Source: CBDUXP01 sp965371225 [NCBI: uncultured bacterium] (GTDB lineage Bacteria; Abyssobacteria; SURF-5; CBDUXP01). Taken from it: a stretch of DNA of 64,000 nucleotides. The translations under genes and the position numbers were made by a program. The notes beneath the pieces were generated by a model. That model saw nothing but the letters and a program-made list of their open reading frames with translations, ran no database searches and had not been told where the DNA came from. The stretch covers positions 62,001 to 126,000 of the forward strand of contig CBDUXP010000002.1 in NCBI GenBank assembly GCA_965371225.1, given 5' to 3'. Below, one piece after another: positions 13,887 through 41,709 of this stretch. Positions within the stretch are counted from its first letter, which is position 1, and each line of letters starts with the position of its first letter.

Positions 13887-15490
13887 AGGGCGGACGTGCC
13901 GGGCGGCAGGTCGGCCCGCAGTTGCGCGAGATAGTCCGCGTGCGGGGGCAATTCTGCGAGCAGCCGGGCCGTCGTCTGCTCGATATCCGCGAATACCGCC
14001 TCCGCCTTGCGCACCGCGTCAGGTAGAAATCGGAGCAGGGGCATCGGCGCTTCCGGGAGCACTCCCATCCCCGCAAGAATGGCCACGTAGTTGCTGTTCG
14101 TCCAGAACCGGTCGAAGCTCGCATCGAACACCAGCTCGTTGTAGTGCGCCGCCCCCGTGTATGGGAGTTTGATCGGCACGCCGGCCCGGTATTCCTTCAG
14201 GAGCGTGCGGACGCGGTCGGGCACGTGGAGTTCGTGCTTGTTGGCCCGCCAGAAGGGCGTGTCCTCGCGCTGCGTCGTGCAGTAGTGCAGTACGAGAAAA
14301 TCCCGCACGTCGTCATACATGTATGCGACGCGTTCGTTGAACTTGTCGCGCAGGGGCGGCGCGATGGCGGCGTTGGGGAAATAGCGCACGAGGTAGTGCA
14401 GGGCGGCGAAAACGAAGTAGATGCTCGTGGCTTCCAGCGGCTCGAGAAAGCCGCCGGCGAGTCCCAGGCTGACGCAGTTGCCCGCCCAGGCGCGGCGGTT
14501 GCGGCCGATGCGCCACTGGAGCCGCCGGGCGGATGCCTCCGCGGCGCGGGGGCCCAGGAAAGCGCGCAGGGCGGTTTCCGCGTCGTCGTCCGAGACGAAA
14601 CGGCTGGAATACACATAGCCGTTCCCCGAGCGGCCGGGCAGGTCGATCTCCCACGTCCAGCCGGCGTCCTGCGCCGTGGCCGTGGTGTAGGGGCGAATGC
14701 GCTCCCCGTCCGGGTGGGGGAGGCGGATGGCGATTGCGCGATCGCACAGCAGGCTCTCGCCGTAACTCTCGAACGGTTCGTGCAGCGCGCCGCGGATCAG
14801 GAGGCCGGGCAGCCCCGAACAGTCGAGGTACAGGTCCGCCGTATACGTGCGGCCGCTCTTCCCGCGCAGGCTCGCGATCTCGCCCGCGGCCGTGAGCTGC
14901 ACGTCCGCGATCTCGTCGGTGACGTCCTCAACCCCGCGCGCGACGGCCCAGTCCTTGAGGAATGCCGTGAGCAGTTGGGCGTCGAAGTGATACGCGTGCG
15001 GGGCCTGGGCCTCCGCGCCGAATCGTTTCGGGGCCCGGTCGGCGTCGCAGAGTGCCGCGGTCGTGTAACACGCGTGGGCGAATGGCTGGTCGAAGCCCGC
15101 GAGCGTCTTCTGGAGCCAGAAATGGGTGATGGGGATCCCGTCGATTTCCCGCGCCTCGCCGAACGTGTGATAGAAGTGCGCGGCGCTCGGCGTGCCCCAA
15201 TTGACGAACTTGATGCCGAACTTGAATCCCGCGTTGCTGGCGGCCATCCAGTCCGCTTCCGGAATACCGAGGAAATCGAAGAAGACGGGCCGGATGCTCG
15301 GGACCGTCCCCTCGCCGACGCCGATGGTGCCGATGTCGGCGGACGCAACGAGGGTGATGTCCACCTGCGCGCCACTCGCGTTGAGCGCCCGCGTCAGGTA
15401 CGCGGCGGCCATCCAGCCTGCCGTGCCCCCACCCACGATGACAATGTTCCGGACCGGCCCCTCAGCCGGTCCGTCTGCCCGGTCTTGCAC
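13883..15490 (-). CDS. Flavin-dependent (tryptophan-type) halogenase
   Basis: The 535-residue protein starts at GTG. It has the FAD-binding GGGTAGWMAA near the N-terminus, GVGEGTVPS, the catalytic lysine region GFKFGIKFVNW (equivalent of PrnA Lys79) and GGFLEPLEATSIYFV, which carries the conserved Glu of the active site. The second signature, usually WxWxIP, reads GWTWEIDLPG, with Asp in place of Pro. These enzymes use FADH2, O2 and chloride or bromide to halogenate tryptophan or other aromatic substrates via a lysine chloramine. A separate flavin reductase would be needed and is not adjacent. There is no biosynthetic cluster around it, so the substrate is unknown. Length and motifs support a functional enzyme. 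Confidence 0.9.
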   Translation of the reverse strand: MQDRADGPAEGPVRNIVIVGGGTAGWMAAAYLTRALNASGAQVDITLVASADIGTIGVGEGTVPSIRPVFFDFLGIPEADWMAASNAGFKFGIKFVNWGTPSAAHFYHTFGEAREIDGIPITHFWLQKTLAGFDQPFAHACYTTAALCDADRAPKRFGAEAQAPHAYHFDAQLLTAFLKDWAVARGVEDVTDEIADVQLTAAGEIASLRGKSGRTYTADLYLDCSGLPGLLIRGALHEPFESYGESLLCDRAIAIRLPHPDGERIRPYTTATAQDAGWTWEIDLPGRSGNGYVYSSRFVSDDDAETALRAFLGPRAAEASARRLQWRIGRNRRAWAGNCVSLGLAGGFLEPLEATSIYFVFAALHYLVRYFPNAAIAPPLRDKFNERVAYMYDDVRDFLVLHYCTTQREDTPFWRANKHELHVPDRVRTLLKEYRAGVPIKLPYTGAAHYNELVFDASFDRFWTNSNYVAILAGMGVLPEAPMPLLRFLPDAVRKAEAVFADIEQTTARLLAELPPHADYLAQLRADLPPGTSAL

Positions 15491-15588
15491 TACTGCCTAC
15501 TACTTCTAGCGAGTCCTTCGAATTGTACGGGTCGCGGGAGGACCTTCGCCAGTCTCTCTCGGGCCGCCGGGGGTACGATAGTGGCACT

Positions 15589-16614
15589 ATGGACGAGCAA
15601 GCGCCACGCGATGGGGAGGTCGTCGTCGGTGTCGACGTGGGCGCCACCAGCATTAAGGCCGGCCTCGTCGACGCCGGCGGGGGATGCGCGCCCCTGGAGG
15701 GCCGGCCCACGGACGCCGACGCGGGGCGGGCGCGCGTGCTCGAGAATCTCGCGGCCGCGGTGGACGCGGCGCTTGCGTACGCCCGCGCGGCCGGTTCGAC
15801 CGTGCGTGGAATTGGCGTGGGTACGCCCGGCGGTGTGCGGCAACCGGAGGGTACGGTGGTCGCCAGTGGGCTGAACATCCGCGAGTGGAACGGCACGGTG
15901 GTGGGCACCGCCGTGTCCGAACGTGCGGGAGGTCTGCACACCGTCGTGGATAACGACGCGAACGCGGCCACGCTGGCGGAGTGGACCTTCGGCTCAGCGT
16001 TCGGCGAAGCGCAGATCGGGGTCGGCCTGACGCTGGGCACGGGCCTGGGGGGCGGCGTGCTCATTGATGGTCAAGTGCTGCGCGGGCGCGAGGGGTTGGT
16101 CGGCGAGTTCTGCCACATGGGCATCGCGTTTGACGGACGCCTCTGCCTGTGCGGCATGCGGGGCTGCCTGGAGGAGTACACCGCCATTCGTGGCGTCGAA
16201 GCACTTGCGGAGGATGCGCGGTCGGCGGGATGCCATGCGCCTTGGACGAATGTGACGGGACCGGCCGTGGTCCCGGCCGCGCTCGAGGCCGCCCGCGCGG
16301 GTGACACGGACGCGCGAGCACTGTGGGAACGCTACGGGGAGTTCCTCGGCTACGGAATCGCGGGCATCAGCGCGGCGCTGCGGCCCGAGGTGTGCGTGCT
16401 GTTCGGCGGGATCGCCCACGCCGCCGAGTTCTTCCTGCCCGCGGTAGAGGAAATGTTGCAGCGCCGCGTGGACGTGGGCACGCCCGTGCCCGTGCGCGTG
16501 ACCACCCTGGGCGACCACGCCGGCGTCCTCGGGGCCGCCGCGCTCGTGTGGGCCGCCCTCGGTCGGGAGCGTGCGGCGCCCGACGGAGCGCCGCGTGCCC
16601 CGCGTCTCGACTGA
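15589..16614 (+). CDS. ROK-family sugar kinase (glucokinase-like)
   Basis: This 341-residue cytosolic kinase has the phosphate-binding VVVGVDVGATSIKAG at the N-terminus and the ROK signature with its zinc site CLCGMRGCLEEY (residues ~183-194). Upstream is LTLGTGLGGGVLIDG, then GEFCHMG with the metal-binding His. The usual substrates are glucose, N-acetylglucosamine or fructose. The short distance between the catalytic Asp (VVDNDANAA) and the ExGH-like HMG favours glucose or a related hexose, but this is not decisive. ATG 15589 is chosen over an in-frame start at 15523 because the intervening peptide is not family-like and a GATAGT hexamer lies there. The next gene is a membrane protein on the same strand. 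Confidence 0.88.
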   Translation: MDEQAPRDGEVVVGVDVGATSIKAGLVDAGGGCAPLEGRPTDADAGRARVLENLAAAVDAALAYARAAGSTVRGIGVGTPGGVRQPEGTVVASGLNIREWNGTVVGTAVSERAGGLHTVVDNDANAATLAEWTFGSAFGEAQIGVGLTLGTGLGGGVLIDGQVLRGREGLVGEFCHMGIAFDGRLCLCGMRGCLEEYTAIRGVEALAEDARSAGCHAPWTNVTGPAVVPAALEAARAGDTDARALWERYGEFLGYGIAGISAALRPEVCVLFGGIAHAAEFFLPAVEEMLQRRVDVGTPVPVRVTTLGDHAGVLGAAALVWAALGRERAAPDGAPRAPRLD

Positions 16615-16641: not shown

Positions 16642-18423
16642 GTGGTCGCACACGAGCGGCGGCCCGTGCGCGTGAGCGCGGAGCCGGGGCTCCGGCGCAT
16701 CCTGGGGTACGGGTGGCTCGCGGCCGGCGGTGCCGTGGTACTCAGCACGGTCGGCTTCGTCATCAGCGGCTACTCGCCCGTTCCGTACTGGGATCAGTGG
16801 TTCGAGATCGCCTGGCTGGAGCGCTATTACGCCGGCGAGGTCGGGCTGGGCACGCTCGCGCGCAGCGTGGGCATTCACCTCCCCTTCGTGCCGCGCCTGT
16901 TCACCTTCGCCGACATGCATTACTTCGGGGGCGCGAATCTGCTGCTCATCCCCACCATCCTGCTGATGCAATCGGGGTCGTGCGCGCTCTACTGCCGCGA
17001 AGCGCTTCGGGCGCCCGACCTCTCCGCGGGGGTGCGCCGGTTCCTCATCGGTGGGTACCTGATGCTGCTCCTCACGGCGGCGCAGATCGAGAATCTGCTC
17101 TGGGGCTTCCAAGTGGCGTTCGTGCTCGCCTATGCGGCGCCGCTGGTGGCGCTCGTCGCCCTCTCCGCGGCGCTCGCACCGGCTGCGACCCACGCGGGGA
17201 GGTGGGCGTGGTTCTCCTTGAGCCTCGCCGCGGCGGCCGTGGCCACCTTCACTGAGGGCAACGGGGTGCTCACGTGGCCGCTGCTCCTGGGCATGGCGTG
17301 TCTGTTTCCGTGCGGGTGGCGCGCGCGCGGGATGTTGCTCGCTGCGGCGGTCCTCGTCCTGCTGGCATGGCGCACGCGCATCGTGCTGTGGTTCCCGGAA
17401 ATGGACGGCGAAGCGTCCGTCGGCCTCGTGTTCGATTTCCTGCTGCGTCAACTGGGGCTGCCGTTCCACACGTCGGCGTGGGCGGCGCGCGTCTTCGGTG
17501 CGGTGGGGCTGGTGGCGGCGGTCGCCGTCACGGTGGCGGCCGCGCGCCGCTGGCGGCAGGTGACCCGGTTTCAGTACCTCCACCTCGCCATGCTCGGGTA
17601 CGCTCTTGCCTCGGCCATCGTGACCGCGCAGACGCGGGCGCCCGTCCTGCGGTCCTGGGGACTGGGAATTCGCTACACCACCACGGCCGTCTTTTTCTGG
17701 GCCAGCCTCCTCACGCTGTTAGTGATCCACGCACGACGCCTGGAGCGGGGCGCGGGTCGCGCCCAGGCGGTGCTCGCAAGCGCGACCGTCCTTGCGTGCG
17801 GGCTCTTCCTCTGGCCCGCTCACCTGCGTGCGGGGGGCACCGCGCGTCCCCAGCGGCTAGCGCGGGAACAGGGTGGGCTGGCGTTGATCGTCGGCGTCCA
17901 TGACCTGGATGCCTACCGGCACTTCACGCTGTTCACCGGCCCCATCCCGCGCCTGGCCAGCTTTCTCCGCGTCCACCGGCTCAGCGTCTTTCGCCCCGAC
18001 TGGCCGCATTGGCTCGGCGACCCCGTAGCGGCGCACGCTACCATCGCCGACGGCGGTGACTTGGCGGGCGCCCTCGAACACGTCGACGCGGTGGAGACGC
18101 CGGCACCGGCGCAAGCGACGCAGGTGGGGTACCGCGTCACCGGCTGGGCCTGGGATCAGACCCGCGACCGGCCGAGCCCGCTGGTGGTGTTGGTGGACGA
18201 AGCGGACCGCATCTGCGGATTCGCCACGCCGACGGTGGACCGGCCCGACCGCGCCGCGGACACGGGCCGCCGACGCCTGCGCCGGTCCGGATGGTTGGGA
18301 TTCGCCCGCCTGCCGCCGGGAACTGGCATCCGCGCGTATGCGCTGACCGCTGACCGGGCGCACGCGGAACTGATCGGAATGTGGCCGCCGCCGGAAATCA
18401 CTGGAGCGCCCGAAGGAGGCTGA
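16642..18423 (+). CDS. Polytopic membrane protein, possible GT-C-type glycosyltransferase (paralogue of 47241-49391)
   Basis: This protein of about 593 residues has roughly nine to ten hydrophobic segments to residue ~395, then a soluble extracytoplasmic tail. The first loop after TM1 has VPYWDQWFEIAW, an acidic motif where GT-C glycosyltransferases carry a catalytic Asp. Other fixed points are QIENLLWGFQVAFVL, TFTEGNGVLTWPL, YTTTAVFFWASLLTLLV and PDWPHWLGD. The tail contains RVTGWAWDQ and a beta-rich stretch. All of these recur in the paralogue 30 kb away, which shows a real conserved family. Function is inferred only from topology and the loop motif. Start candidates are GTG 16642, 16666 and 16672. 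The neighbouring ROK kinase and the window's glycosyl genes fit a surface-sugar role. Confidence 0.75.
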   Translation: MVAHERRPVRVSAEPGLRRILGYGWLAAGGAVVLSTVGFVISGYSPVPYWDQWFEIAWLERYYAGEVGLGTLARSVGIHLPFVPRLFTFADMHYFGGANLLLIPTILLMQSGSCALYCREALRAPDLSAGVRRFLIGGYLMLLLTAAQIENLLWGFQVAFVLAYAAPLVALVALSAALAPAATHAGRWAWFSLSLAAAAVATFTEGNGVLTWPLLLGMACLFPCGWRARGMLLAAAVLVLLAWRTRIVLWFPEMDGEASVGLVFDFLLRQLGLPFHTSAWAARVFGAVGLVAAVAVTVAAARRWRQVTRFQYLHLAMLGYALASAIVTAQTRAPVLRSWGLGIRYTTTAVFFWASLLTLLVIHARRLERGAGRAQAVLASATVLACGLFLWPAHLRAGGTARPQRLAREQGGLALIVGVHDLDAYRHFTLFTGPIPRLASFLRVHRLSVFRPDWPHWLGDPVAAHATIADGGDLAGALEHVDAVETPAPAQATQVGYRVTGWAWDQTRDRPSPLVVLVDEADRICGFATPTVDRPDRAADTGRRRLRRSGWLGFARLPPGTGIRAYALTADRAHAELIGMWPPPEITGAPEGG

Positions 18424-26357: not shown

Positions 26358-29300
26358 TTAGCCTTCGAGGGCGGCGCGGACTTTGTCGAGCAGGGCCGAG
26401 GGGTGGTATGGCTTCTGGATGAAGCCGGCGAGGCCCTTGCCGGAGAATTCGTTCGTGGCGTCCTGTTCGTTGAAGCCGCTGGAGAGGATGACGCAGACTT
26501 CGCTGCGCAGGCGCCGCAGCTCGCGGAAGGTTTCATCCCCGGCCATGTGCGGCATGGTCATGTCCAGCAGCACGAGCACGATGTCCTCCTCGTGCTCCTT
26601 GAACACTTCCAAGGCCTCCACGCCGTCGTTCGCCGTCAGGATCTCGAAGCCGGCGTGCTCCAGCGTCGCTTTGGCGACCGAGCGCACGTTCTCCTCGTCG
26701 TCCACGACCAAGACCAGGCCGCCGCTCCGCCACTCGCGCGCGGACGGCGGCTCCTCGGGCGCGGGGAGCACCTCTTTGTTGACGGCGGGGAAGAGGACTT
26801 TGAAGGTGCTGCCCCGGCCCGGTTCGCTGTACACCTTGAGCGCCCCATGGTGGCCGCGGACGATCCCGAGCACGGCGGCCAGGCCGAGCCCGCGCCCCGT
26901 GAATTTCGTGGTGAAGAAGGGATCGAAGATCTTCGCGATCGTGTCCACGTCCATGCCGATGCCGGAATCCGATACCTCCAGGTACGCGTAGATGCCTTCG
27001 GCCAAGTCCTCATCCAGGAAGGTCTCGGTGAGGTAGGCGCGGTCCGCGTGCAGGCGGCCCGTGGTAATGCTGATGGCCCCGCTCTTGTTTTCCACCGCGT
27101 CCGAGGCGTTGGTGATGAGGTTCATGATGACCTGCCGCACCTGGGTCGCATCGCCTTCGATGGCCGGGAGGTCCGTGGCGAGGTTCAACTTGAGCACGGC
27201 CTTCTTCGAGATGACCGTCTCCAGGAGATGGGCCATCTCCTCGACGAGGGCGGAGAGGTGCAGCGGCCGGATGATGAACTTCCCGCGGCCGGAGTAGGCC
27301 AGGAGTTGGTTCGTCAGGTCGGCGGCCCGCTGGGCAGCGGTTTCGATCCGCTGCAGGTAGCCCACCGAGGGGGAGCTGTCGGGCAGGTCCATGAGCGCCA
27401 AGCCCGCGTTGCCGAGCATCCCCACCAGGAGGTTGTTGAAATCGTGGGCGATCCCGCCGGCAAGCACACCCAGGCTTTCGAGCTTTTGCGTGTGCTGGAT
27501 CTGCTGTTGCAATTCATGCCGCTCCGCTTCGGCCTGCTGCCGTTCGGAAATATCGCGCGCGAACGCGCAGTTGAAGCGTTTGTCCCCGTACTGCAGCAGG
27601 TTCGCCGTGATCTCCACCGGGAAGGTCGTGCCGTCCTTGCGGCGGTGCCGGGTTTCCAGCCGGAAGACGCCGTCGCGCGTGAGGCTGTCCCACACCACCG
27701 GCCACTGCTCCCGGGTAAAGTCCGCGTCGATGTCGAACACGGACAGGGTGAGCAATTCCTCGCGGCTGAGGCCGAGCGAGCGGCAGGCGGCGTCGTTGAC
27801 ATACGTGAATCGCGCGTCGGGGTCCATCCAGAACACGGCGTCCGCGGCGTGGTCGACGGCGAACTGCGTGAACTGGAGTGCCTCCTCGGCCCGCTTGCGC
27901 TCGGTGATGTCCTGCACGGTGCCCATCCCGCCGATGGGCGTGCCGTCCTTGTCGTACACCACCTCGCCATGCTCGTGCACCCACCGCAGGGTGCCGTCCG
28001 GCCGCCGCACCCGATGGTCGATGCCGTAGGGCGTGCCCTGGCTGAGGGAGGCCTGGATCGCCGCCTCGACAGCTTCGCGGTCGTCCCCATGGACAAAACT
28101 CATGAAGGAGTCGTACGTCCCGGCGAATTCCTCGCGTCCGATGCCGAATATGCGGTAGATCTCATCGGACCAGGTGAGCGTGTCCGTGGGGATGTCCCAC
28201 GCCCAATTGCCCATCTGCGCGAGTTGCTGAGCTTGCGCCAGACTGGCTTCGCTGCGGCGCAGGGCCTCTTCGGCCTGTTTGCGCTCGGTGATGTCCCGCG
28301 CCGCACCCTGGCGCAGGCGGATGCGGCCGTCAGCATCACGCAGCACCGTGACGGCAATTTCGCACCAGACCTTCTCACCGGCCCGGTTCAGGATGGGCAC
28401 CTCGATGCGGTAGGCATCCAGTTCCCCCGCCTCCACTTGCCGAGTGAGGTCGGAGATCGACACGTTAGCCTCTTCGGTGACCAGGCCGGTCAAGTAGTGG
28501 TACCCCAGCACCTCCTCGGGCCTGAAGCCCGTGATGCGCTCGATCGCCGGACTCACGTAGGTGAAGTGCCCTTCGGCATCGGCGATCCAGATCATGTCCT
28601 GGGCGTGGTCGGCCAGCGCGCGATAGCGCTCCTCACTCGCGCGCAGGGCCTGCTCCGCCTCCCGGCGTTCCGTGATGTCGCGGGTCACGCCGTTGATGCC
28701 TACCAACTGCCCATTCGCGTCGCGCAGCACCACGCAGTTCACCTCGCACGGACAGACGCTGCCGTCCTTCCGGCGCAGCGCACTCTCGAACATCAATTCG
28801 TCAAGTTCGCCGGACGCCGCCTGGCCGAAGAGCTGCATCCCCTGCTCCAGATAGTCCGGGTGCATGATCGCGTCGAGGCCTCGACCCATGACTTCTTCCG
28901 GGGTGAAGCCCGTGATGCGCTCCAGGGAGGGGCTGCAGTAGGTGAAGCGTCCGCTGCTGTCGATGGACCAGATGATGTCGCGGACCTGTGTGGCCAGGTG
29001 CCGGTGGCGCTCTTCGCTCTCGCGCAAGGCCGCGTCGGCCTGCCGGCGTTCCGTGATGTCGCGTGCCACGCCCTGGACGGCCATTGGCCGGCCGGCGTCA
29101 TCCACGAGAAAGACCGCGTACAGTTCATACCAGATGGGTTCGCCGCTGCGCGGCACCAACCGGGCTTCGAAGCGGGCTTCCGTCCGGGTCCCGGCCATGC
29201 CCTCGGCGAACAGGCGATTGGTCATCTCCAGCGCTTCCGGCGCAAGGAGTTCGGCAAAGTGGTGGCCGAGCATCTCCGTCGTGTTGAGCCCCAGGAAGCG

Positions 29301-32162
29301 CTCCACGGAGGGGCTGAGGTACGTGAACCGCCCCTCGACATCGATGGACCAGATCAGGTCCTGCGCGTGTTCGGTCAGCACGCGAAACCGCTCTTCGCTT
29401 GTGCGGAGGGCCGCCTCGGACAGCCGGCGCTCCGTGATGTCGCGCGAGACGCCTTGGATGGCGACCAGGCGGCCGCCCGCATCCCGCACGGCGGTGACGG
29501 ACACCTCGCACCAGATGGCTTCGCCCGTCGAGGTCGCCTGGCGGATCTCCACGAGCCAGTTGTCCGGCAGTACGGCGCCAAGGTCGTCGGCGTCAATCCA
29601 CGCCCGGACTTCTGGATCCACATGCTCCTGGTCGGCCGCAACCACGCTCGACAGGAAGTGGTAGCCGATCAGTTCGTCTGGCGGGAAGCCGAACAGGCGC
29701 TCGGCTGAGGGACTCACGTAGGTGAACAGCCCCTGCGCGTCCGCCGCCCAGATCACGTCGCGCGCCTGGTCGGCCAACACGCGGTAGCGCTCCTCGCTGG
29801 CCTGCAGCGCGCGTTGGGCCGTAGCGCGGTCGGTGTAATCCGTCGCGACGCCGCTGACCCCGGTGACGGTCCCGTCCGCGTCCCGGAGGGGCGTGTAGTG
29901 CACTTCGTACACGAGGTCGCCGATTTCCGTGAGGGCCGACACGGGCGTCCCGGCCAGGGCTTGGCGGACGTTCTCAAGGATTTGGGGCACGTCGCGGTAC
30001 AACTCGTACACCGACTGCCCGACAATCTCGCCCGGCCATAGCCCTTGGGAGGCGAGCCCCTTGCCTTCGGACAGGGTGAAGATCCCGTCTCTGTCGATAC
30101 CGAACAGCACGACGGGGGCGTTCGCCACCAGGCTGCCCAACTGTTCTTCCGCGCGGCGCCGGTCTTCTTCGGCCTGCGCATGATCCTGCACGTCCGTCGC
30201 GACGCCCATGATGCCTTCGACCTCGCCCGTGCTGCCACGCACCGGCGAGTAGCGCACGTCGAATAGGCGGCCCGCAAACGGAAACTTCGCCGTGACCTCT
30301 TCTCCCGCCAGCGCCCGGCGCATGTGGTCCACTATCTCCGGGGCTTCGCCGATGCGCGTGAACTGCGGAGCTGCCGTGCTATCCGGAAGCACAGTGGTGC
30401 CCACGATGTCTTCTGGCTTCAGCCCGATGGATCGCAGGGCCTGGCCCTCGGCGAACGTGCACACGCCGCGCGCGTCCGCCGTGAAGAGGACCAACGGCAG
30501 GCTGGCCATCACGGTGCGCAGCCGCGCCTCGGTGGCCTCGAGGTTCGTGAGGGCGCTCCGGGTTTCCGTAACATCCCGGAAGCTCCACACCCGGCCGGAC
30601 GGCTCGCCCTCGACCCGCAGGGGGTGAGAGTGGTGTTCGATGATCCGGCCATCCTTGAATTCCAGAATATCGATGCTCTCGGCGTGCGGGTCGCCGTACA
30701 ACTCTTGCACCTTGGCGCGGAACGCCTCCGGCTCCGTGAGCTGGTCGAGCACAAACTGGAGCGCCTGGTCACCGTCGCGCGCCGCGAGGATCGCTTCGGG
30801 CAGCCCCCACATTTCGACGAGCTTCTGGTTGTAGGTCAAGAATTGGCCGTTGGCGTCGACCACCAGGACCCCGTCGGCCGTCGCATCCAACGTCGCGCCC
30901 AGCAGGGCGTCCGATGGGACCGGCCCGGCGACCGATGGGGCCGGCAGCGCATCCGATGGGGCCGGGTCGGGCGCCGTCTGCGTCCGGTCGCCGACCTCGC
31001 GCACGATGGCCTGCACCCGGCCGTCCTCCAGCAGGGTGGCCTGCGCTTCCACGAGCACGGGGGCACTATGCTTGCCGAGCAGGCGATGTTCGCTGACGGT
31101 CGTCTCGCCCCCGGGCGCGTCGGCCAGCAGAGCCTGCGCCGCCGCGGAGTCTTCCGGCGACAGGAGATCCGCGATGTTCCGCTCGCGCAATTCCGCTTCG
31201 GTGTAGTCGAGCATCGCGCAGAACCTGGGGTTGGCCGAGAGGAAATTACCCTGCCGGTCCACGATAAAAAGGCCGTCGGACGTCTGCGTCCTGAGGGCCT
31301 GGTATCGCTGCTCGCTGGTGCGCAGCCGCTGCTCCGCCTGCTTGTGGTCGGTCACGTCCAGCAGCACGGCCATCCCGCGCACGAACGCGCCGGTGTCGTC
31401 GCGCGTGGTCGTGGCTGACATCACGACTTCGAGCGGGGTGCCGTCCTTGGTCGCATATTGATACGGCACGTTCATGGCCAGCCCCGTCTCACGCAGACTC
31501 GGCAGGGCCACCTCTTCGGCGTACCGGCGAGATTCGGGCGTGAGGAAATCCGTCGCGGGCCGGCCCAGCACTTCCTCACGCGCGTACCCCAACCGGTCCA
31601 GCCAGGAATCACTCACGCTGACGAGCGTGCCCTCGGCGTCGATGGTCTGCAACATGATGGGGGAGTGGCTAGTAGACAGCAGGCGGAAGAAGTCTTCCTG
31701 CTCCTCCGGAACACACGTGGCTGGCGAAGTGGGCGCGGGCTTCCAGGCCCCCCGCCGGGCGGCTGCCGAGGCCACCTTGGCCGGCAGGAGGACGGTGAAC
31801 CCCTGGTGATCGTCCATGACCACACAATCGGCTGCCCCGGCTTTCAGGGCCCCTGCGGCTTCCGTCTCTTCCCCGGGAGCCACGAGCAAGATCACGGGCA
31901 TGTCTGGAACGGCAGCCAGGATCCGGGCACAGAGTTCCTGTCCCGACATGTCCGGTAAATCCTGGTCGATGAGTACCAGGTGGCAGTCGTTCGCCCTCCG
32001 TTGCTGCCGCAGTGCTCCCAGGGCGGCCTCACCGCTCTCGCACCGGGTGATGATGCACGGCATATCGCTCTTCAGGAGAGACCGGCGGATCAGGTCGCTC
32101 GCACTGTCGCTCGTTTCGGCGAACAGTATCTTGAGCGGAACTGTTGGGGCGTGATCCGTCAT
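26358..32162 (-). CDS. Giant hybrid sensor histidine kinase with N- and C-terminal receivers and ~11 PAS domains
   Basis: The 1,934-residue cytosolic kinase begins with a receiver-like domain (LVLIDQDLPDMSG, phosphoacceptor Asp in place). About eleven PAS/PAC units follow (PAC ends recur as RDITERR or TDVQDHA), from ~residue 145 to ~1555. The HisKA domain has its phosphorylated His at ~1573 (GGIAHDFNNLLV). The ATPase has N-box MNLITNASDAVENK, DSGIGMD and GRGLGLAAVLGIVRG. The C-terminal receiver has Asp at ~1867 (LVLLDMTMPHMAG). PAS domains sense redox, oxygen, light or small molecules; none shows an obvious flavin or heme motif, so ligands are unknown. No membrane segments are seen. A start at 32342 is possible but the extra N-terminus is not family-like. 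The 32163-32617 region holds its promoter. Confidence 0.93.
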   Translation of the reverse strand: MTDHAPTVPLKILFAETSDSASDLIRRSLLKSDMPCIITRCESGEAALGALRQQRRANDCHLVLIDQDLPDMSGQELCARILAAVPDMPVILLVAPGEETEAAGALKAGAADCVVMDDHQGFTVLLPAKVASAAARRGAWKPAPTSPATCVPEEQEDFFRLLSTSHSPIMLQTIDAEGTLVSVSDSWLDRLGYAREEVLGRPATDFLTPESRRYAEEVALPSLRETGLAMNVPYQYATKDGTPLEVVMSATTTRDDTGAFVRGMAVLLDVTDHKQAEQRLRTSEQRYQALRTQTSDGLFIVDRQGNFLSANPRFCAMLDYTEAELRERNIADLLSPEDSAAAQALLADAPGGETTVSEHRLLGKHSAPVLVEAQATLLEDGRVQAIVREVGDRTQTAPDPAPSDALPAPSVAGPVPSDALLGATLDATADGVLVVDANGQFLTYNQKLVEMWGLPEAILAARDGDQALQFVLDQLTEPEAFRAKVQELYGDPHAESIDILEFKDGRIIEHHSHPLRVEGEPSGRVWSFRDVTETRSALTNLEATEARLRTVMASLPLVLFTADARGVCTFAEGQALRSIGLKPEDIVGTTVLPDSTAAPQFTRIGEAPEIVDHMRRALAGEEVTAKFPFAGRLFDVRYSPVRGSTGEVEGIMGVATDVQDHAQAEEDRRRAEEQLGSLVANAPVVLFGIDRDGIFTLSEGKGLASQGLWPGEIVGQSVYELYRDVPQILENVRQALAGTPVSALTEIGDLVYEVHYTPLRDADGTVTGVSGVATDYTDRATAQRALQASEERYRVLADQARDVIWAADAQGLFTYVSPSAERLFGFPPDELIGYHFLSSVVAADQEHVDPEVRAWIDADDLGAVLPDNWLVEIRQATSTGEAIWCEVSVTAVRDAGGRLVAIQGVSRDITERRLSEAALRTSEERFRVLTEHAQDLIWSIDVEGRFTYLSPSVERFLGLNTTEMLGHHFAELLAPEALEMTNRLFAEGMAGTRTEARFEARLVPRSGEPIWYELYAVFLVDDAGRPMAVQGVARDITERRQADAALRESEERHRHLATQVRDIIWSIDSSGRFTYCSPSLERITGFTPEEVMGRGLDAIMHPDYLEQGMQLFGQAASGELDELMFESALRRKDGSVCPCEVNCVVLRDANGQLVGINGVTRDITERREAEQALRASEERYRALADHAQDMIWIADAEGHFTYVSPAIERITGFRPEEVLGYHYLTGLVTEEANVSISDLTRQVEAGELDAYRIEVPILNRAGEKVWCEIAVTVLRDADGRIRLRQGAARDITERKQAEEALRRSEASLAQAQQLAQMGNWAWDIPTDTLTWSDEIYRIFGIGREEFAGTYDSFMSFVHGDDREAVEAAIQASLSQGTPYGIDHRVRRPDGTLRWVHEHGEVVYDKDGTPIGGMGTVQDITERKRAEEALQFTQFAVDHAADAVFWMDPDARFTYVNDAACRSLGLSREELLTLSVFDIDADFTREQWPVVWDSLTRDGVFRLETRHRRKDGTTFPVEITANLLQYGDKRFNCAFARDISERQQAEAERHELQQQIQHTQKLESLGVLAGGIAHDFNNLLVGMLGNAGLALMDLPDSSPSVGYLQRIETAAQRAADLTNQLLAYSGRGKFIIRPLHLSALVEEMAHLLETVISKKAVLKLNLATDLPAIEGDATQVRQVIMNLITNASDAVENKSGAISITTGRLHADRAYLTETFLDEDLAEGIYAYLEVSDSGIGMDVDTIAKIFDPFFTTKFTGRGLGLAAVLGIVRGHHGALKVYSEPGRGSTFKVLFPAVNKEVLPAPEEPPSAREWRSGGLVLVVDDEENVRSVAKATLEHAGFEILTANDGVEALEVFKEHEEDIVLVLLDMTMPHMAGDETFRELRRLRSEVCVILSSGFNEQDATNEFSGKGLAGFIQKPYHPSALLDKVRAALEG

Positions 32163-32617
32163 AGCAACTAGTGGCGGTTCTGGGGTCGCCCAGGGCGCGC
32201 TGCGCCAGCGGTCACGCCCGCACGCGCCTGGTCGCTCCAGCCGCTGTCGACGGGCGTCCGCCCACCTGTCATCCGTCGCTGCCCCGCCACTGCACTGCCT
32301 CGCTCTTCGCTCTAGCCGGCCCCGATGCAAACCGACACGCATATATACTGATACTACTAATAATACTACTATTGCTGCACGTCTGTATAGGTTCCAGAGG
32401 GGCTTAAGTGCTAGTTCAGCACTACTTCTGTGCTACGACGTGCGACGGATGACGGTCAGGGGGAGGGTACTGCGCGATGGCCTCAGGGGGGAGCTCTAGC
32501 CAGCGTGGCCGAGTCCAGGCGCAGGCCCCTTACCCGGCGGGTGGGGCGGGAGAGGAGCGCCGCCCAGAGGGGGGCCGGGCGGCACTCCCGGGGGCGCTGC
32601 GGCCCCTCAGGGAACGG
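32163..32617. other. Kinase promoter region with tandem direct repeat
   Basis: This gap upstream of the kinase contains an AT-rich patch at 32338-32390 in GC-rich DNA. Within it, ATACTACTA occurs twice, at 32351-32359 and 32363-32371, a 12-base period that could hold a regulator on one face of the helix. A small hairpin, AGTGCT/AGCACT (32407-32423), also lies here. No coding gene was recognised. Confidence 0.55.
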
Positions 32618-35723: not shown

Positions 35724-35740
35724 CTATACAATTGTGCCTC

Positions 35741-36589
35741 ATGGCTACACAAGTCCCCCTCGTGGAGCAAGGCAAGTTGGATAAGGCGCTGACCCTGCTC
35801 AGGAGACGGCAGGAAGAACTCGCGCAATTCAAGGATCAGGACCGCCAAGGAGCCGAGACGCACCAATGGACAAACCTCACTCATTCAGACGTCCGGGACA
35901 TCTTCGGCCGCGGCTCCGATCAGGATCACGCCTTTCAGGGAGCATTTTACGCCGTGGAACTCACCGATGGATACGGGGACATTGTGCCCGGTGCGCAGCG
36001 GGAAATTTGGAGCTATGTCGATGCCGTGTTGTCGGGATTTGTCCAGCACATCGAGGAAAGGATTGAGCTAGGGTTGCAGGCCGCGGAGCAGGGCAGCGGC
36101 GCTGGGGGAAGTGGGACAGTCCCCGGCCCTTCTTCCCGTGACGTGTTCGTCGTGCATGGCCATGACCGTGTGACACGCGATAGAGTCGAACTTTTGTTGA
36201 GGCAGCTAAAGCTGAATCCTATAGTGCTGGAAAACCAGCCCAGCAAGGGGCAACACGTTCTCGGAAAAGTCCAGGCCAATGCGGATGTATCGTTCGCGGT
36301 CGTGCTCCTCACGCCGGATGATGCGGGCGGTGAGGCCGTGGACAGCGATACCCCAATAGCCCACGTCACCCAGCATCGGGCCAGGCAGAATGTAATTCTT
36401 GAACTGGGATTCTTCCTCGGCAAATTGGGCCTGAGCCACGTGTGCGCACTCTACACCCCGGGTGTTGAGCTTCCAGGCAACTACGGGGGCGTGGTGTACG
36501 TGTCCTTGGATCTTCCCGATTGGCCCCTCCGCTTGGGGAGGGAGATTGATGCGGCCGGAATCGATGTCGATTTTAACCTCCTAAAATGA
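35741..36589 (+). CDS. TIR-domain effector, CAP12/Pycsar type (PF10137-like)
   Basis: This 282-residue protein has a helical N-terminal half (residues 1-115, beginning VEQGKLDKALTLLRRRQEEL). A Gly/Ser linker follows, then a TIR-like nucleotide-binding domain from ~134. Motifs are VFVVHGHD (135-142), QPSKGQHVLGKVQ, VVLLTPDD (187-194) and RQNVILELGFFLGKLG with Glu221. Family knowledge: such TIR domains degrade NAD+ in CBASS, Pycsar and related anti-phage systems, with Glu as the catalytic residue. No cyclase gene is beside it, so this may be an orphan effector or a relic. A start at 35732 (TTG) is possible. Codon composition is clearly less GC-rich than the flanks, and inverted repeats bound the region, which suggests transfer. 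Confidence 0.85.
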   Translation: MATQVPLVEQGKLDKALTLLRRRQEELAQFKDQDRQGAETHQWTNLTHSDVRDIFGRGSDQDHAFQGAFYAVELTDGYGDIVPGAQREIWSYVDAVLSGFVQHIEERIELGLQAAEQGSGAGGSGTVPGPSSRDVFVVHGHDRVTRDRVELLLRQLKLNPIVLENQPSKGQHVLGKVQANADVSFAVVLLTPDDAGGEAVDSDTPIAHVTQHRARQNVILELGFFLGKLGLSHVCALYTPGVELPGNYGGVVYVSLDLPDWPLRLGREIDAAGIDVDFNLLK

Positions 36590-38670: not shown

Positions 38671-39264
38671 TTAGCGCTGAAGCGCGATGCCGGTCTCGCC
38701 GGCTTGGCGCGTCCCCTCATCCAGTTGCAGGCCGAAGCCGTCGGCGAGTCGCGTCAGGTAGTTGAAGATGCCGACAATGTGGCCCACTTCCAGGCACGCT
38801 TCGTCCTTGAAGCCTAACTCGCGCAGAGCGGCCCAGTCGGACTCGACCATGCGCGTGGGGGTGCCGGACAGTTTTTCCGCCACGTCGCACAGGGCCCGCT
38901 GCCGCGCCGTGAGGTCGGGCACTTCGCGCCACGTCTTGGTCTTGATGGCCTCGACCAATGCGGAGTTGCCGTCTTCGACACGCAGAAACTCTGCGTGGGA
39001 CTGCGTTCAGTAGTGGCAGTCCTGCGCGGCGGCGGCTACGGCGGCGACCATCTCCTTCTCCGTCCGATCCAGATGCCCCGGCGCGAACATGATTTGCGAA
39101 AACAGGGCACCGAACAGCGGTCCGATCTGCTGGTGCGTCATGCTCAGGCACGCCATGGCAGGTAGGAACCCGAAATCGTACGGATGGCCGGCCGGAATGA
39201 ACTCCCGCAACGCCGCTTCGCTCGGCATGGTCACCCACGCATCGGGGATCGTGTGGTCGCTCAT
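38671..39264 (-). CDS. Selenocysteine-containing AhpD-like peroxidase (CxxU), UGA at codon 86
   Basis: The minus-strand frame from ATG 39264 to 38671 is open except for a TGA at 39007-39009. Reading it as Sec gives a 197-residue AhpD/carboxymuconolactone-decarboxylase-fold protein with the redox motif CHYU (Cys83, Sec86) followed by His90. This is the family's CxxCxxxH with the second Cys as UGA. Coding continues in frame (QSHAEFLRVEDGNSALVEA) and the downstream half (DEACLEVGHIVGIFNYLTRL) is typical AhpD. A perfect 8-base-pair hairpin with loop GTT starts nine bases after the UGA. AAGGAG precedes the ATG. Such proteins reduce peroxides with a thioredoxin-type partner. No sel genes are in the window. 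Confidence 0.86.
38979..38997 (-). promoter_or_regulatory. Bacterial SECIS-like hairpin
   Basis: On the minus strand, CACGCAGA-GTT-TCTGCGTG forms a perfect 8-base-pair stem with a 3-base loop whose first base is G. It starts nine bases after the UGA, and the loop begins 17 bases after it. These values fit the published description of bacterial SECIS elements (small apical loop with a guanosine in the first two positions, at short distance from the UGA), which recruit SelB with Sec-tRNA. Confidence 0.78.
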
Positions 39265-39387: not shown

Positions 39388-40347
39388 ATGACGACATCAC
39401 AGCGCGAGCATGGCCACATTCCGCAGCCGGGCGGTGGCGAGTACCACTGGACGTGGCCGCAGGTGGAGGGGCCGGAGGTTTTCACGCGCCTTTACGCAAA
39501 GGCGGTGGCGGGGCAGTGGGCCGCGGATGACATGGATTGGGCGGGGGGCGCGCCGTTGGCGCAGGCCGCCGCCGTGCCGGACCACATGGTGCCCATCTTC
39601 GGCACGCCCCTGTGGGACGACTTGGGCCCGGAGCGCCAGCAGCACCTGCGCGAGGGCATGATGGTGTGGAACCTGAGCGGGCTGCTGCACGGCGAGCGTA
39701 GCGGCATCGTCGGACCCGCGGCCACGGCGTTCAGCGTGCCGTGGGAGGATGCGAAGAAGGTCGCGGCGGTGATGCTCTGCGACGAGGCGCGCCACACGGA
39801 CGTGCTCGAACGCTATTTCGCGGCGAAGGCGCCGGACACGGAGGTCACGCCCATTAGCGGCCCGCTGAGCACGCTGCTGGAGACCGCGCTCAACGAACCG
39901 CGCTCGGCATTGCGGCATCTCGTCGCCGGCTGCGTTGCCGAGGGGCTCGCGCTCGCCATCTACGGCGGCACGCGCATGGTGACGGACGATCCGCTGCTGA
40001 GCGCGATCCTCAAGGGCATCGTGGATGACGAAGCGCGGCACGTGGCGTTCGCCGTGGCGCTGGTGGAGAACACGAAGGACGAGTGGAGCGCGGCGGAACA
40101 GCACGAGGCGGAGGACATGGCCCTCGCCGCCGTCGAGCAGATGGCGCAGGGCGGCAACTTCGAGCCCTTCGCCGACGTGGGGCTGGATCCCGCGGACGTG
40201 CAACGCTGCGTCACCGAGCGCCAGGAGCAGGGCCAAGGCCGAAGCAACTTCGTCTTCAGCCACGTGACGCCTAACCTTAAACGCCTGGGCATGATCACCG
40301 CCCGCACCCGCCCGCGCTACGCCGAACTCGGCCTCGTCGACGCCTAG
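39388..40347 (+). CDS. Ferritin-like diiron oxygenase-type protein
   Basis: This 319-residue helical protein has the ligand pattern of a ribonucleotide-reductase R2-like or AurF-like diiron protein: Glu103 (HGERSG), Glu133/His136 (CDEARHTDV), Glu185 (VAEGLALAIY) and Glu215/His218 (DDEARHVAFAV). The two DEARH motifs at the ends of separate helices are a strong signature of the diiron four-helix bundle. Such proteins activate O2 to oxidise substrates or serve in radical enzymes. R2 needs a Tyr beside iron and a NrdA partner, neither of which is seen, so an oxygenase is more likely. It is separated by 65 bases from the haloalkane dehalogenase gene, and the divergent neighbour is the selenoprotein. 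Confidence 0.85.
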   Translation: MTTSQREHGHIPQPGGGEYHWTWPQVEGPEVFTRLYAKAVAGQWAADDMDWAGGAPLAQAAAVPDHMVPIFGTPLWDDLGPERQQHLREGMMVWNLSGLLHGERSGIVGPAATAFSVPWEDAKKVAAVMLCDEARHTDVLERYFAAKAPDTEVTPISGPLSTLLETALNEPRSALRHLVAGCVAEGLALAIYGGTRMVTDDPLLSAILKGIVDDEARHVAFAVALVENTKDEWSAAEQHEAEDMALAAVEQMAQGGNFEPFADVGLDPADVQRCVTERQEQGQGRSNFVFSHVTPNLKRLGMITARTRPRYAELGLVDA

Positions 40348-40412: not shown

Positions 40413-41309
40413 ATGGAAATCTTACGCACACCCGAGGAGCGGTTCGCGAATCTGCCGGGGTATCGCTTCGCGCCGCACTACGCAGAGGTGGACGGGCTGC
40501 GGGTGCACTACGTGGACGAGGGCCCAGCCGATGCGGCGCCGGTGCTCTTGCTCCACGGCGAACCCTCGTGGAGCTACCTCTATCGCAAGATGATCCCGGT
40601 GCTCATGGCGGCGGGGCATCGCACCGTCGCGCCGGACCTGGTGGGGTTCGGGAAGTCGGACAAGCCGGCCGCGCAGGAGGATTACACCTACCAGCGGCAT
40701 GTGGATTGGATGCGCGCCGTCCTGTTCGATCACCTGGACCTGCGCGACATCACCCTGGTCTGCCAGGACTGGGGCGGGTTGATCGGGCTGCGGCTCGTGG
40801 CGGAGCACCCGGACCGGTTTGCCCGGGTCGTGGTGGCGAACACGGGGCTCGCAACCGGGGACCGGTCGCCCGGCGAGGCATTTCTCGCGTGGCGCACGTT
40901 TTCGCGGGAAGCGAAGGCCTTCGACGTCGGCCGCATCATTAGCGGCGCCACCGTCACCGACGTGCCCGAGAACGTGCTTGCCGCGTACGACGCACCCTTC
41001 CCCGACGACACGTACAAGGCGGGGGCGCGTATCTTTCCTTCGCTCGTGCCCATCACGCCGGACGACCCCGCCGCACCGGCGAACCGCAAAGCGTGGGAAG
41101 TGCTCAGCGCGTTCACCAAGCCGGTGCTCACGGCGTTCAGCGACAGCGACCCGATCACGCAGGGCGGCGAAGGGGTGTTCCAGAAGCTCGTGCCGGGGGC
41201 GACCGGCCAGCCGCACACTACCATTGCCGGCGCGGGCCACTTCTTGCAAGAAGATAAGGGCGAGGACCTGGCCTGGGTGGTCAACGATTTCATCGCGCGG
41301 ACGTCGTAG
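40413..41309 (+). CDS. Haloalkane dehalogenase (HLD-I-like)
   Basis: This 298-residue alpha/beta hydrolase converts halogenated alkanes to alcohol plus halide. HGEPSWSYLYRKM is the oxyanion-hole segment. The nucleophile is Asp119 in VCQDWGG with a halide-binding Trp120 next to it. Trp160 (FLAWRTFS) is a candidate second halide Trp. The other acid is Asp246 (or 244, FSDSDPIT) and the base is His276 (GAGHFLQED). The nucleophile-Trp pair and Asp after strand 7 favour subfamily HLD-I (DhlA-like) over the HLD-II Asn type. A true epoxide hydrolase would have Tyr pairs in the cap. It has a plausible start 65 bases after the diiron gene, and a DUF1330 gene follows with its own SD. Confidence 0.9.
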   Translation: MEILRTPEERFANLPGYRFAPHYAEVDGLRVHYVDEGPADAAPVLLLHGEPSWSYLYRKMIPVLMAAGHRTVAPDLVGFGKSDKPAAQEDYTYQRHVDWMRAVLFDHLDLRDITLVCQDWGGLIGLRLVAEHPDRFARVVVANTGLATGDRSPGEAFLAWRTFSREAKAFDVGRIISGATVTDVPENVLAAYDAPFPDDTYKAGARIFPSLVPITPDDPAAPANRKAWEVLSAFTKPVLTAFSDSDPITQGGEGVFQKLVPGATGQPHTTIAGAGHFLQEDKGEDLAWVVNDFIARTS

Positions 41310-41340: not shown

Positions 41341-41709
41341 ATGGCTGAACTGCCGAATCCGGATCAGATGGAAGCGTTTCTCGCGCGCAAGGACGATGGC
41401 CCCGTCGTGATGCTGAACCTACTCAAGTTCAAGCCCGACGGCGGGGCCGAGAGTTATGCCCAGTACGGCGCGGCGGTCGCGCCCCTGCTCGAAAAGACGG
41501 GTGGGCGGAGCACGTACATGGGCGCCGCCGCGGAGCTGCTCATCGGCACCGAGGACTGGGATATGATGCTGATAGTCGAGTATCCCACGCGTCAGGCGCT
41601 GCTCAACATGATCACGTCAGACGAGTATCGCGCGGTCCAACACCTGCGCGACGATGCGATAGTGCGGTCGGTCTTGCTGGCGACCGACCCCGTCGCCGCT
41701 CCGGGTTAA
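41341..41709 (+). CDS. DUF1330/EthD-like small protein
   Basis: This 122-residue ferredoxin-like alpha/beta-barrel protein has the DUF1330-type start DGPVVMLNLLKFKPDGG and the later IVEYPTRQALLNMITSDEYRAVQHLR, which resembles the dimeric family of small oxygenases and EthD stress proteins. AGGAGGG five bases before the ATG is a clear ribosome-binding site. It comes third after the diiron and dehalogenase genes, so it is likely an accessory protein of that pathway. The last stop, TAA, is shared as TTAA with the convergent FapA gene. Confidence 0.82.
   Translation: MAELPNPDQMEAFLARKDDGPVVMLNLLKFKPDGGAESYAQYGAAVAPLLEKTGGRSTYMGAAAELLIGTEDWDMMLIVEYPTRQALLNMITSDEYRAVQHLRDDAIVRSVLLATDPVAAPG

What the first reader, a model, noticed from the sequence alone, without database searches (positions are those of the whole stretch)
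38671..39264. Probable new selenoprotein: AhpD-like peroxidase with Cys-x-x-Sec active site
A UGA codon sits exactly where the second active-site Cys of the AhpD/CMD family belongs (CHY-UGA, then TQSH). The frame is open on both sides and both halves match the family. A perfect 8-bp hairpin with a G-first 3-base loop starts nine bases after the UGA, matching the bacterial SECIS description. Automatic annotation would split this into two short fragments or call a pseudogene. Sec-AhpD proteins are known in some lineages, but this divergent member beside a diiron protein and a dehalogenase is notable.
Basis: partly seen in the sequence, partly recalled or inferred. Interest (0 to 1): 0.86.

Follow-up and report, generated by a model that had tools for sequence, protein, structure and literature searches.

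The report
Selenocysteine-containing AhpD-like redox enzyme gene
A stop codon inside this bacterial gene is very probably read as selenocysteine in the active site of a small antioxidant-type enzyme; the gene is a well-supported new member of a selenoprotein family described in 2005, so it is a sound annotation rather than a surprise.

Summary
The ORF lies on the minus strand (39264 to 38671), with an in-frame TGA at codon 86 (39009-39007) where AhpD-like proteins have the second Cys of CxxC. The selenoprotein reading is strongly supported by relatives. All 25 related loci, found without selecting for TGA, carry TGA at the site. All 25 of their genomes hold a tRNA-Sec gene with anticodon TCA. 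The hairpin fits the published bSECIS model, its codons are fixed at silent sites beyond nearly all others in the gene, it shows compensatory changes, and it is absent from Cys homologues. The predicted fold is AhpD-like. The window's own genome is not held, so its sel genes could not be checked.

The family is known: a 2026 review lists "AhpD-like protein, TIGR01926, CxxU", citing the 2005 Sargasso Sea paper. The protein is not especially divergent (about 71% identity to relatives), and the AurF-like and dehalogenase neighbours are not conserved in the flanks held. Verdict: a genuine but ordinary new member of a known selenoprotein family.

The parts
38671..39264 (-). CDS of an AhpD-like (TIGR01926) selenoprotein, 197 residues with Sec86, stop TAA
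39270..39275 (-). Shine-Dalgarno-like AAGGAG, 5 bases before the ATG
   Evidence: read from sequence
39007..39009 (-). TGA, read as Sec86
39016..39018 (-). Cys83 (TGC), first residue of the CxxU pair
   Evidence: invariant in alignment A1
38979..38997 (-). bSECIS hairpin CACGCAGA-GTT-TCTGCGTG; also encodes residues from His90 to Arg95 and the first base of codon 96
39388..40347 (+). neighbour: AurF-like diiron protein (PF11583), divergently oriented; no match in the loci held
40413..41309 (+). neighbour: haloalkane dehalogenase-like alpha/beta hydrolase (NF002043, 481 bits)

Best explanation
The gene encodes a small all-helical AhpD-like thiol/selenol oxidoreductase of the TIGR01926 'peroxidase-related' group. 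At UGA codon 86, SelB bound to the hairpin at 38979-38997 delivers Sec-tRNA, so the protein carries Cys83-His-Tyr-Sec86 with His90 and Glu71, at the spacing of the proton-relay residues of known AhpD proteins. Sec86 most likely is the residue that meets the peroxide (or another electrophile), and Cys83 resolves it as a selenenylsulfide that a cellular thiol donor reduces again. Shown here by comparison: conserved TGA, conserved hairpin, family, predicted fold, Sec machinery in relatives' genomes. Inferred: Sec insertion in this organism, the catalytic role, the substrate and the reductant.
For: 25 of 25 related loci have TGA at the site (23; L015 and, read by eye, the frameshifted L025); the one search peptide that spans the site was written with Cys and cannot match TGA. 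RF01852 over cut-off in 25 of 25 of their genomes, and ARAGORN calls tRNA-SeC with anticodon tca in the best locus of each, 25 of 25; selA over cut-off in 21 of 25, selB in 19 of 25. Silent sites: six hairpin codons have a mean top-codon fraction of 0.95 against 0.595 for 94 other codons; GCA 21 of 22 (9% elsewhere in these genes), TTT 22 of 24 (16%), CGT 25 of 25 (11%). Covariation: pair 17-27 is CG in 23, GC in 7, UA in 1 and unpaired in 5 of 36 distinct rows; covariation score 0.143 against a shuffled mean of 0.082 (0 of 500 as high) and at most 0.085 when slid. Pairing in 22 TGA forms from the surveys exceeds that in 20 Cys forms (p = 5e-6). The published bSECIS model is met: loop 3, stem 8, G first, spacing 17 nt, -19.3 kcal/mol for a 63-nt stretch (model). 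The window lies in a clade of 26 rows, all Sec, SH-aLRT 99 (quick tree). Model pLDDT 93.4; best PDB match by E-value an AhpD, 6k40, TM 0.77-0.78. Glu71, Cys83, Tyr85, Sec86, His90 have the spacing of Glu36, Cys48, Tyr50, Cys51, His55 of PA0269 (passages of PMC3141380).
Against: The window's own genome is not held, so its sel genes are unseen, and its lineage was not identified. Hairpin energy is not exceptional, and 463 of 1252 window TGAs meet the model's minimum stem. L005 and L018 keep TGA but pair only 5 and 3 of 8 positions; 7 of 22 survey TGA forms pair fewer than 6. Two of the 94 background codons are as fixed as the hairpin codons (F51, C126). On the pair count, the number of pairs with double changes (2) and of further pair types (6) do not exceed shuffles (139 and 104 of 500), and slid versions reach 3 and 7. 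selA does not sharply separate TGA-bearing from Cys-bearing Chloroflexota genomes: 15 of 16 against 15 of 19. No experiment bears on it.
Confidence: 0.93

Rival explanations
1. A nonsense mutation: the gene is a recent pseudogene of a Cys-containing AhpD, or of a Sec gene carried into a genome without Sec machinery.
For: The window's own sel genes are unseen; Cys forms of the wider family exist, 19 of 40 matches in the Chloroflexota survey.
Against: TGA at the same codon in 25 of 25 related loci; the window gene is otherwise open and keeps a perfect hairpin with codons that are rare elsewhere; all 26 rows of its clade are Sec.
Confidence: 0.04
2. A sequencing or assembly error that turned TGC or TGT into TGA.
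For: No reads were available.
Against: The same TGA occurs in 25 other loci, followed by a hairpin that Cys forms lack.
Confidence: 0.01
3. TGA is reassigned genome-wide (for example to Trp) and is not read as Sec.
For: None found.
Against: The neighbouring ankyrin-repeat gene ends in TGA; by the filter only two window TGAs have coding-like frame on both sides; homologues carry Cys at the site.
Confidence: 0.01
4. A real selenoprotein whose job is not peroxide reduction but reductive dehalogenation, like the related debrominase Bmp8.
For: Bmp8 (6ohi) matches by sequence (E 5.4e-5) and by fold (TM 0.78, as high as 6k40); a haloalkane dehalogenase lies nearby and a tryptophan halogenase homologue in the same window.
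Against: Five AhpD-like 'peroxidase-related' chains match with far better E-values in sequence (7e-20 to 3e-16) and in fold search; the neighbours are not conserved in the flanks held.
Confidence: 0.05

Closest known systems
AhpD-like selenoprotein, TIGR01926, CxxU (PMC13188914 Table 1, citing PMC1088965)
   Same: Same NCBIfam model (104.4 bits, above cut-off) and same CxxU motif; PMC1088965 reports SECIS-like stem-loops downstream of the UGA of all its new selenoproteins (passages).
   Different: No difference found; the listed representative (MCB9421940.1) was not compared.
NF041238 AhpD_rel_CFYUT (alkylhydroperoxidase-related selenoprotein)
   Same: Related domain; CxxU motif in PMC13188914 Table 1.
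   Different: Model of 357 positions; the window protein scores 60.7 against a cut-off of 175 and matches only positions 216-342.
AhpD of Deinococcus radiodurans (6k40) and PA0269 of Pseudomonas aeruginosa (2o4d), Cys proteins
   Same: Fold; for PA0269 the spacing of the proton-relay residues.
   Different: Cys in place of Sec; 27% and 24% identity in the structural alignment.
Debrominase Bmp8 (6ohi)
   Same: Fold (TM 0.78) and a weak sequence match.
   Different: Much weaker E-values than the AhpD-like structures in both searches.

Membership tests
TIGR01926 peroxidase-related (AhpD-like) enzymes | Score above the curated cut-off | tested here: met
   104.4 against 81.8 bits
TIGR01926 peroxidase-related (AhpD-like) enzymes | All-helical AhpD-like fold | tested here: met
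   Model pLDDT 93.4, helices only; 6k40, 2prr, 3c1l TM (query length) 0.77-0.83
AhpD-like catalytic site | Glu, Cys, Tyr/His, Cys (here Sec) and His at AhpD spacing | tested here: met
   E71, C83, Y85, U86, H90 invariant in 25 rows; reference residues from passages of PMC3141380
AhpD-like catalytic site | Peroxidase activity | not testable with these tools
   needs an assay
Bacterial selenoprotein | In-frame UGA at a Cys position of homologues | tested here: met
   Cys in the four PDB alignments shown, 6k40, 2oyo, 3c1l, 2prr, and in 19 of 40 Chloroflexota matches
Bacterial selenoprotein | bSECIS within the published model | tested here: met
   loop 3 nt, stem 8 bp, G first, spacing 17 nt (model from passages)
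Bacterial selenoprotein | tRNA-Sec, SelA and SelB in the same genome | tested here: inconclusive
   own genome not held; genomes of relatives: 25 of 25, 21 of 25 and 19 of 25 over cut-off
NF041238 AhpD_rel_CFYUT | Score above the curated cut-off | tested here: not met
   60.7 against 175 bits
Bmp8-type reductive debrominase | Debromination of halogenated pyrroles (recalled; the PDB title names a tribromopyrrole complex) | not testable with these tools
   only fold and weak sequence similarity seen

The most novel reading that the evidence does not exclude
The window belongs to a Sec-only subfamily (26 of 26 rows in its clade, from records labelled Chloroflexota, Binatota, Dormiibacterota, Pseudomonadota, Myxococcota and Campylobacterota) that has specialised as a selenocysteine-dependent reductive dehalogenase, a Sec counterpart of Bmp8, rather than a peroxidase.
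Probability: 0.04. Interest if true: 0.6.

Novelty: new member of a known kind. Interest (0 to 1): 0.2.

Why it matters
Under the standard code the gene reads as two ORFs of 93 and 95 aa, so an annotation that does not recognise Sec would lose the enzyme (no annotation pipeline was run here). The set assembled here adds a Sec-only clade, seen in records labelled with several phyla and with a SECIS held at silent sites, to a family first reported in 2005. It is useful for annotation and for SECIS models; it opens no new mechanism.

Tried and rejected
Parent genome: not available as a file or for search, so sel genes were sought in the genomes of relatives. Parent lineage: the FapA protein of the window matched 0 of 26 genomes (25 of relatives and G217) and 34 of 118 genomes of the phylum of G022, the best at 36% identity; the radical-SAM/B12 protein matched 15 of 400 Chloroflexota genomes at E 1e-60 or better, 28-37% identity. 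The lineage was left open.

Functional neighbourhood: AurF, RPE65, TetR, TIR and the small ORF at 41343 had no match at E 1e-8 in the loci held (at most 6 kb of flank, often less; ankyrin matches were not printed). The dehalogenase matched strongly (66-72%) only in L094-L101, fetched for this stretch and not beside the Sec gene; weak hydrolase matches (34%, 41%) lie about 5.5 kb from the gene in L008 and L025, and a third (31%) in L046.

Other results without weight: hairpin energy z-score; selA as a separator of Sec-bearing and Cys-bearing genomes; Rfam at gathering score and ARAGORN on the window found nothing; promoter and terminator scan found 0 and 2 sites, expected 0.0 and 0.7. Plasmid collection: 137 records match, all below 60% identity; Sec or Cys was not checked there.

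Papers: PMC13188914, PMC2398784, PMC1088965 and PMC3141380 were seen as passages found by term. Others (PMC9312934, PMC1794560, PMC7435645, PMC9402790, PMC3290545, PMC13083753) only in search listings. Searches: selenoprotein + AhpD-like + SECIS, 7 papers; selenoprotein + Chloroflexota + peroxidase, 1, off topic by its listing; alkylhydroperoxidase-related + selenocysteine, 0; TIGR01926 + selenocysteine, 1; selenoprotein + SAR202, 0; selenoprotein + carboxymuconolactone decarboxylase + metagenom, 2.

Rows left out: L025 (frameshifted) from A1, the silent-site test and the pair counts; hairpin codon 96 and other codons with fewer than 18 rows of the window's residue from the silent-site means; 10 of the 22 survey TGA forms were fetched after A3 was made and are not; G069 (site outside the match) from the TGA/Cys count but not from the selA count; L064, L065 and L102 from the tree and as repeats of L002, L016 and L006.

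Full report
Observation. Its only interruption is TGA at codon 86 (39009-39007). Table 11 gives two ORFs of 93 and 95 aa. Read with TGA as a residue it scores 104.4 bits to TIGR01926 (cut-off 81.8) and 39.9 to Pfam CMD, and the TGA falls on the second Cys of CxxC in the four PDB alignments shown, 6k40, 2oyo, 3c1l and 2prr.

Relatives. One scan of genome contigs gave 25 loci, 49-75% identical in the best segment. The one search peptide that spans the site was written with Cys, so TGA was not selected for. All 25 have TGA there: 23, L015, and the frameshifted L025 by eye in the DNA printed. In the 24 loci counted, 22 pair at least 7 of 8 stem positions; L005 and L018 pair 5 and 3.

Sec machinery. 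In the 25 genomes of these loci RF01852 is over cut-off in 25. As that search also exceeds its cut-off in 5 of 14 control genomes, ARAGORN was run on the best locus of each genome: tRNA-SeC, anticodon tca, in 25 of 25. SelA is over cut-off in 21 of 25 (1 of 14 controls) and SelB in 19 of 25 (2 of 14 controls). The window's own genome is not held.

SECIS. The hairpin meets the model in PMC13188914 (passages): 3-9 nt loop (here 3), 4-16 bp stem (here 8), G in the first two loop positions, spacing 16-37 nt (here 17), energy at most -7.5 kcal/mol (a 63-nt stretch folds at -19.3). This alone is weak: 463 of 1252 window TGAs have a stem of at least 4 pairs in such a place, though only 6 have 8 or more, and the energy is not unusual against shuffles. 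Silent sites are the stronger test: codons 90-95 have top-codon fractions of 0.88-1.00 against a mean of 0.595 in 94 other codons (two of which, F51 and C126, also exceed 0.9), although GCA, TTT and CGT are otherwise rare in these genes (9, 16 and 11%). On 37 TGA-bearing sequences (36 distinct; window, 24 loci and 12 survey forms) 87.2% of cells pair, against 18-67% when slid, with 9 doubly changed cells (shuffled mean 2.8, 0 of 500 as high; slid at most 5). The number of doubly changed pairs (2) and further pair types (6) do not exceed shuffles or slides. Relatedness can inflate such counts.

Sec and Cys forms. In 301 Chloroflexota genomes (phylum of G002, itself and G016 included), 37 gave 40 matches at E 1e-20 or better. 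At the site 20 have TGA, 19 TGC or TGT, and one lies outside the match. In 148 genomes of the phylum of G006 (itself included), 2 gave 6 matches, 5 TGA and 1 Cys. Hairpin pairing is 2-8 (median 6) in 22 TGA forms from these surveys and 0-5 in 20 Cys forms. SelA is over cut-off in 15 of 16 TGA-bearing (14 of 15 without G069, whose site is unread) and 15 of 19 Cys-bearing Chloroflexota genomes, and in G367, so it does not separate the forms sharply. A quick tree places the window in a clade of 26 rows, all Sec, SH-aLRT 99. The records in that clade are labelled with several phyla; transfer or mislabelled bins are both possible.

Mechanism. The AlphaFold model (pLDDT 93.4) matches AhpD-like crystal structures (TM 0.77-0.83 for 6k40, 2prr, 3c1l); the debrominase Bmp8 has a similar TM (0.78) with weaker E-values. 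Glu71, Cys83, Tyr85, Sec86 and His90 have the spacing of the proton relay of PA0269 (Glu36, Cys48, Tyr50, Cys51, His55) given in PMC3141380 (passages). I infer a thiol/selenol peroxidase-type oxidoreductase; that Sec86 rather than Cys83 attacks the substrate is inference, and substrate and reductant are unknown.

Neighbourhood. The AurF-like and haloalkane dehalogenase genes exist. No AurF match lies in the loci held; strong dehalogenase matches (66-72%) lie in loci fetched for that stretch, away from the Sec gene, and weak hydrolase matches (34%, 41%) lie about 5.5 kb from it in L008 and L025. Flanks held are at most 6 kb, so this is a limited test; it gives no functional hint.

Novelty. PMC13188914 Table 1 lists 'AhpD-like protein, TIGR01926, CxxU' with reference 59, the 2005 Sargasso Sea paper. 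That paper reports 27 AhpD-like sequences with CXXU, and PMC2398784 reports AhpD-like 1 and 2 with CxxU. All were seen as passages. This is a new member of a known kind.

Noticed in passing
L005:6259-6297, L018:286-324, L072, L111, L112: TGA is kept but the canonical 8-bp hairpin is not (3-5 of 8 pairs); all five share the 3' arm CCTCCGTG, which may mark a different SECIS class.
   Followed up: no
L025:60-631: The related gene is frameshifted upstream of the TGA but keeps TGA and hairpin; assembly error or pseudogene.
   Followed up: no
L113 (G002:C26:41158-41846): A divergent second family member in a Sec-positive genome with both a TGA and a TAA in frame.
   Followed up: no
L102-L107 (G006, G367): Some genomes hold several family members: G367 three with TGA; G006 two with TGA and one with Cys.
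   Followed up: partly
35732-36589: ORF with a CAP12/Pycsar-type TIR domain (PF10137), a possible defence effector.
   Followed up: no
13883-15490 (minus): Tryptophan halogenase homologue, 513 bits.
   Followed up: no
26358-32342 (minus): A 1994-residue sensor kinase with many PAS domains and two receiver domains.
   Followed up: no
16612 (plus): The only other TGA with coding-like frame on both sides; it ends the ORF 15523-16614, and the ORF 16642-18423 follows in the same frame.
   Followed up: partly
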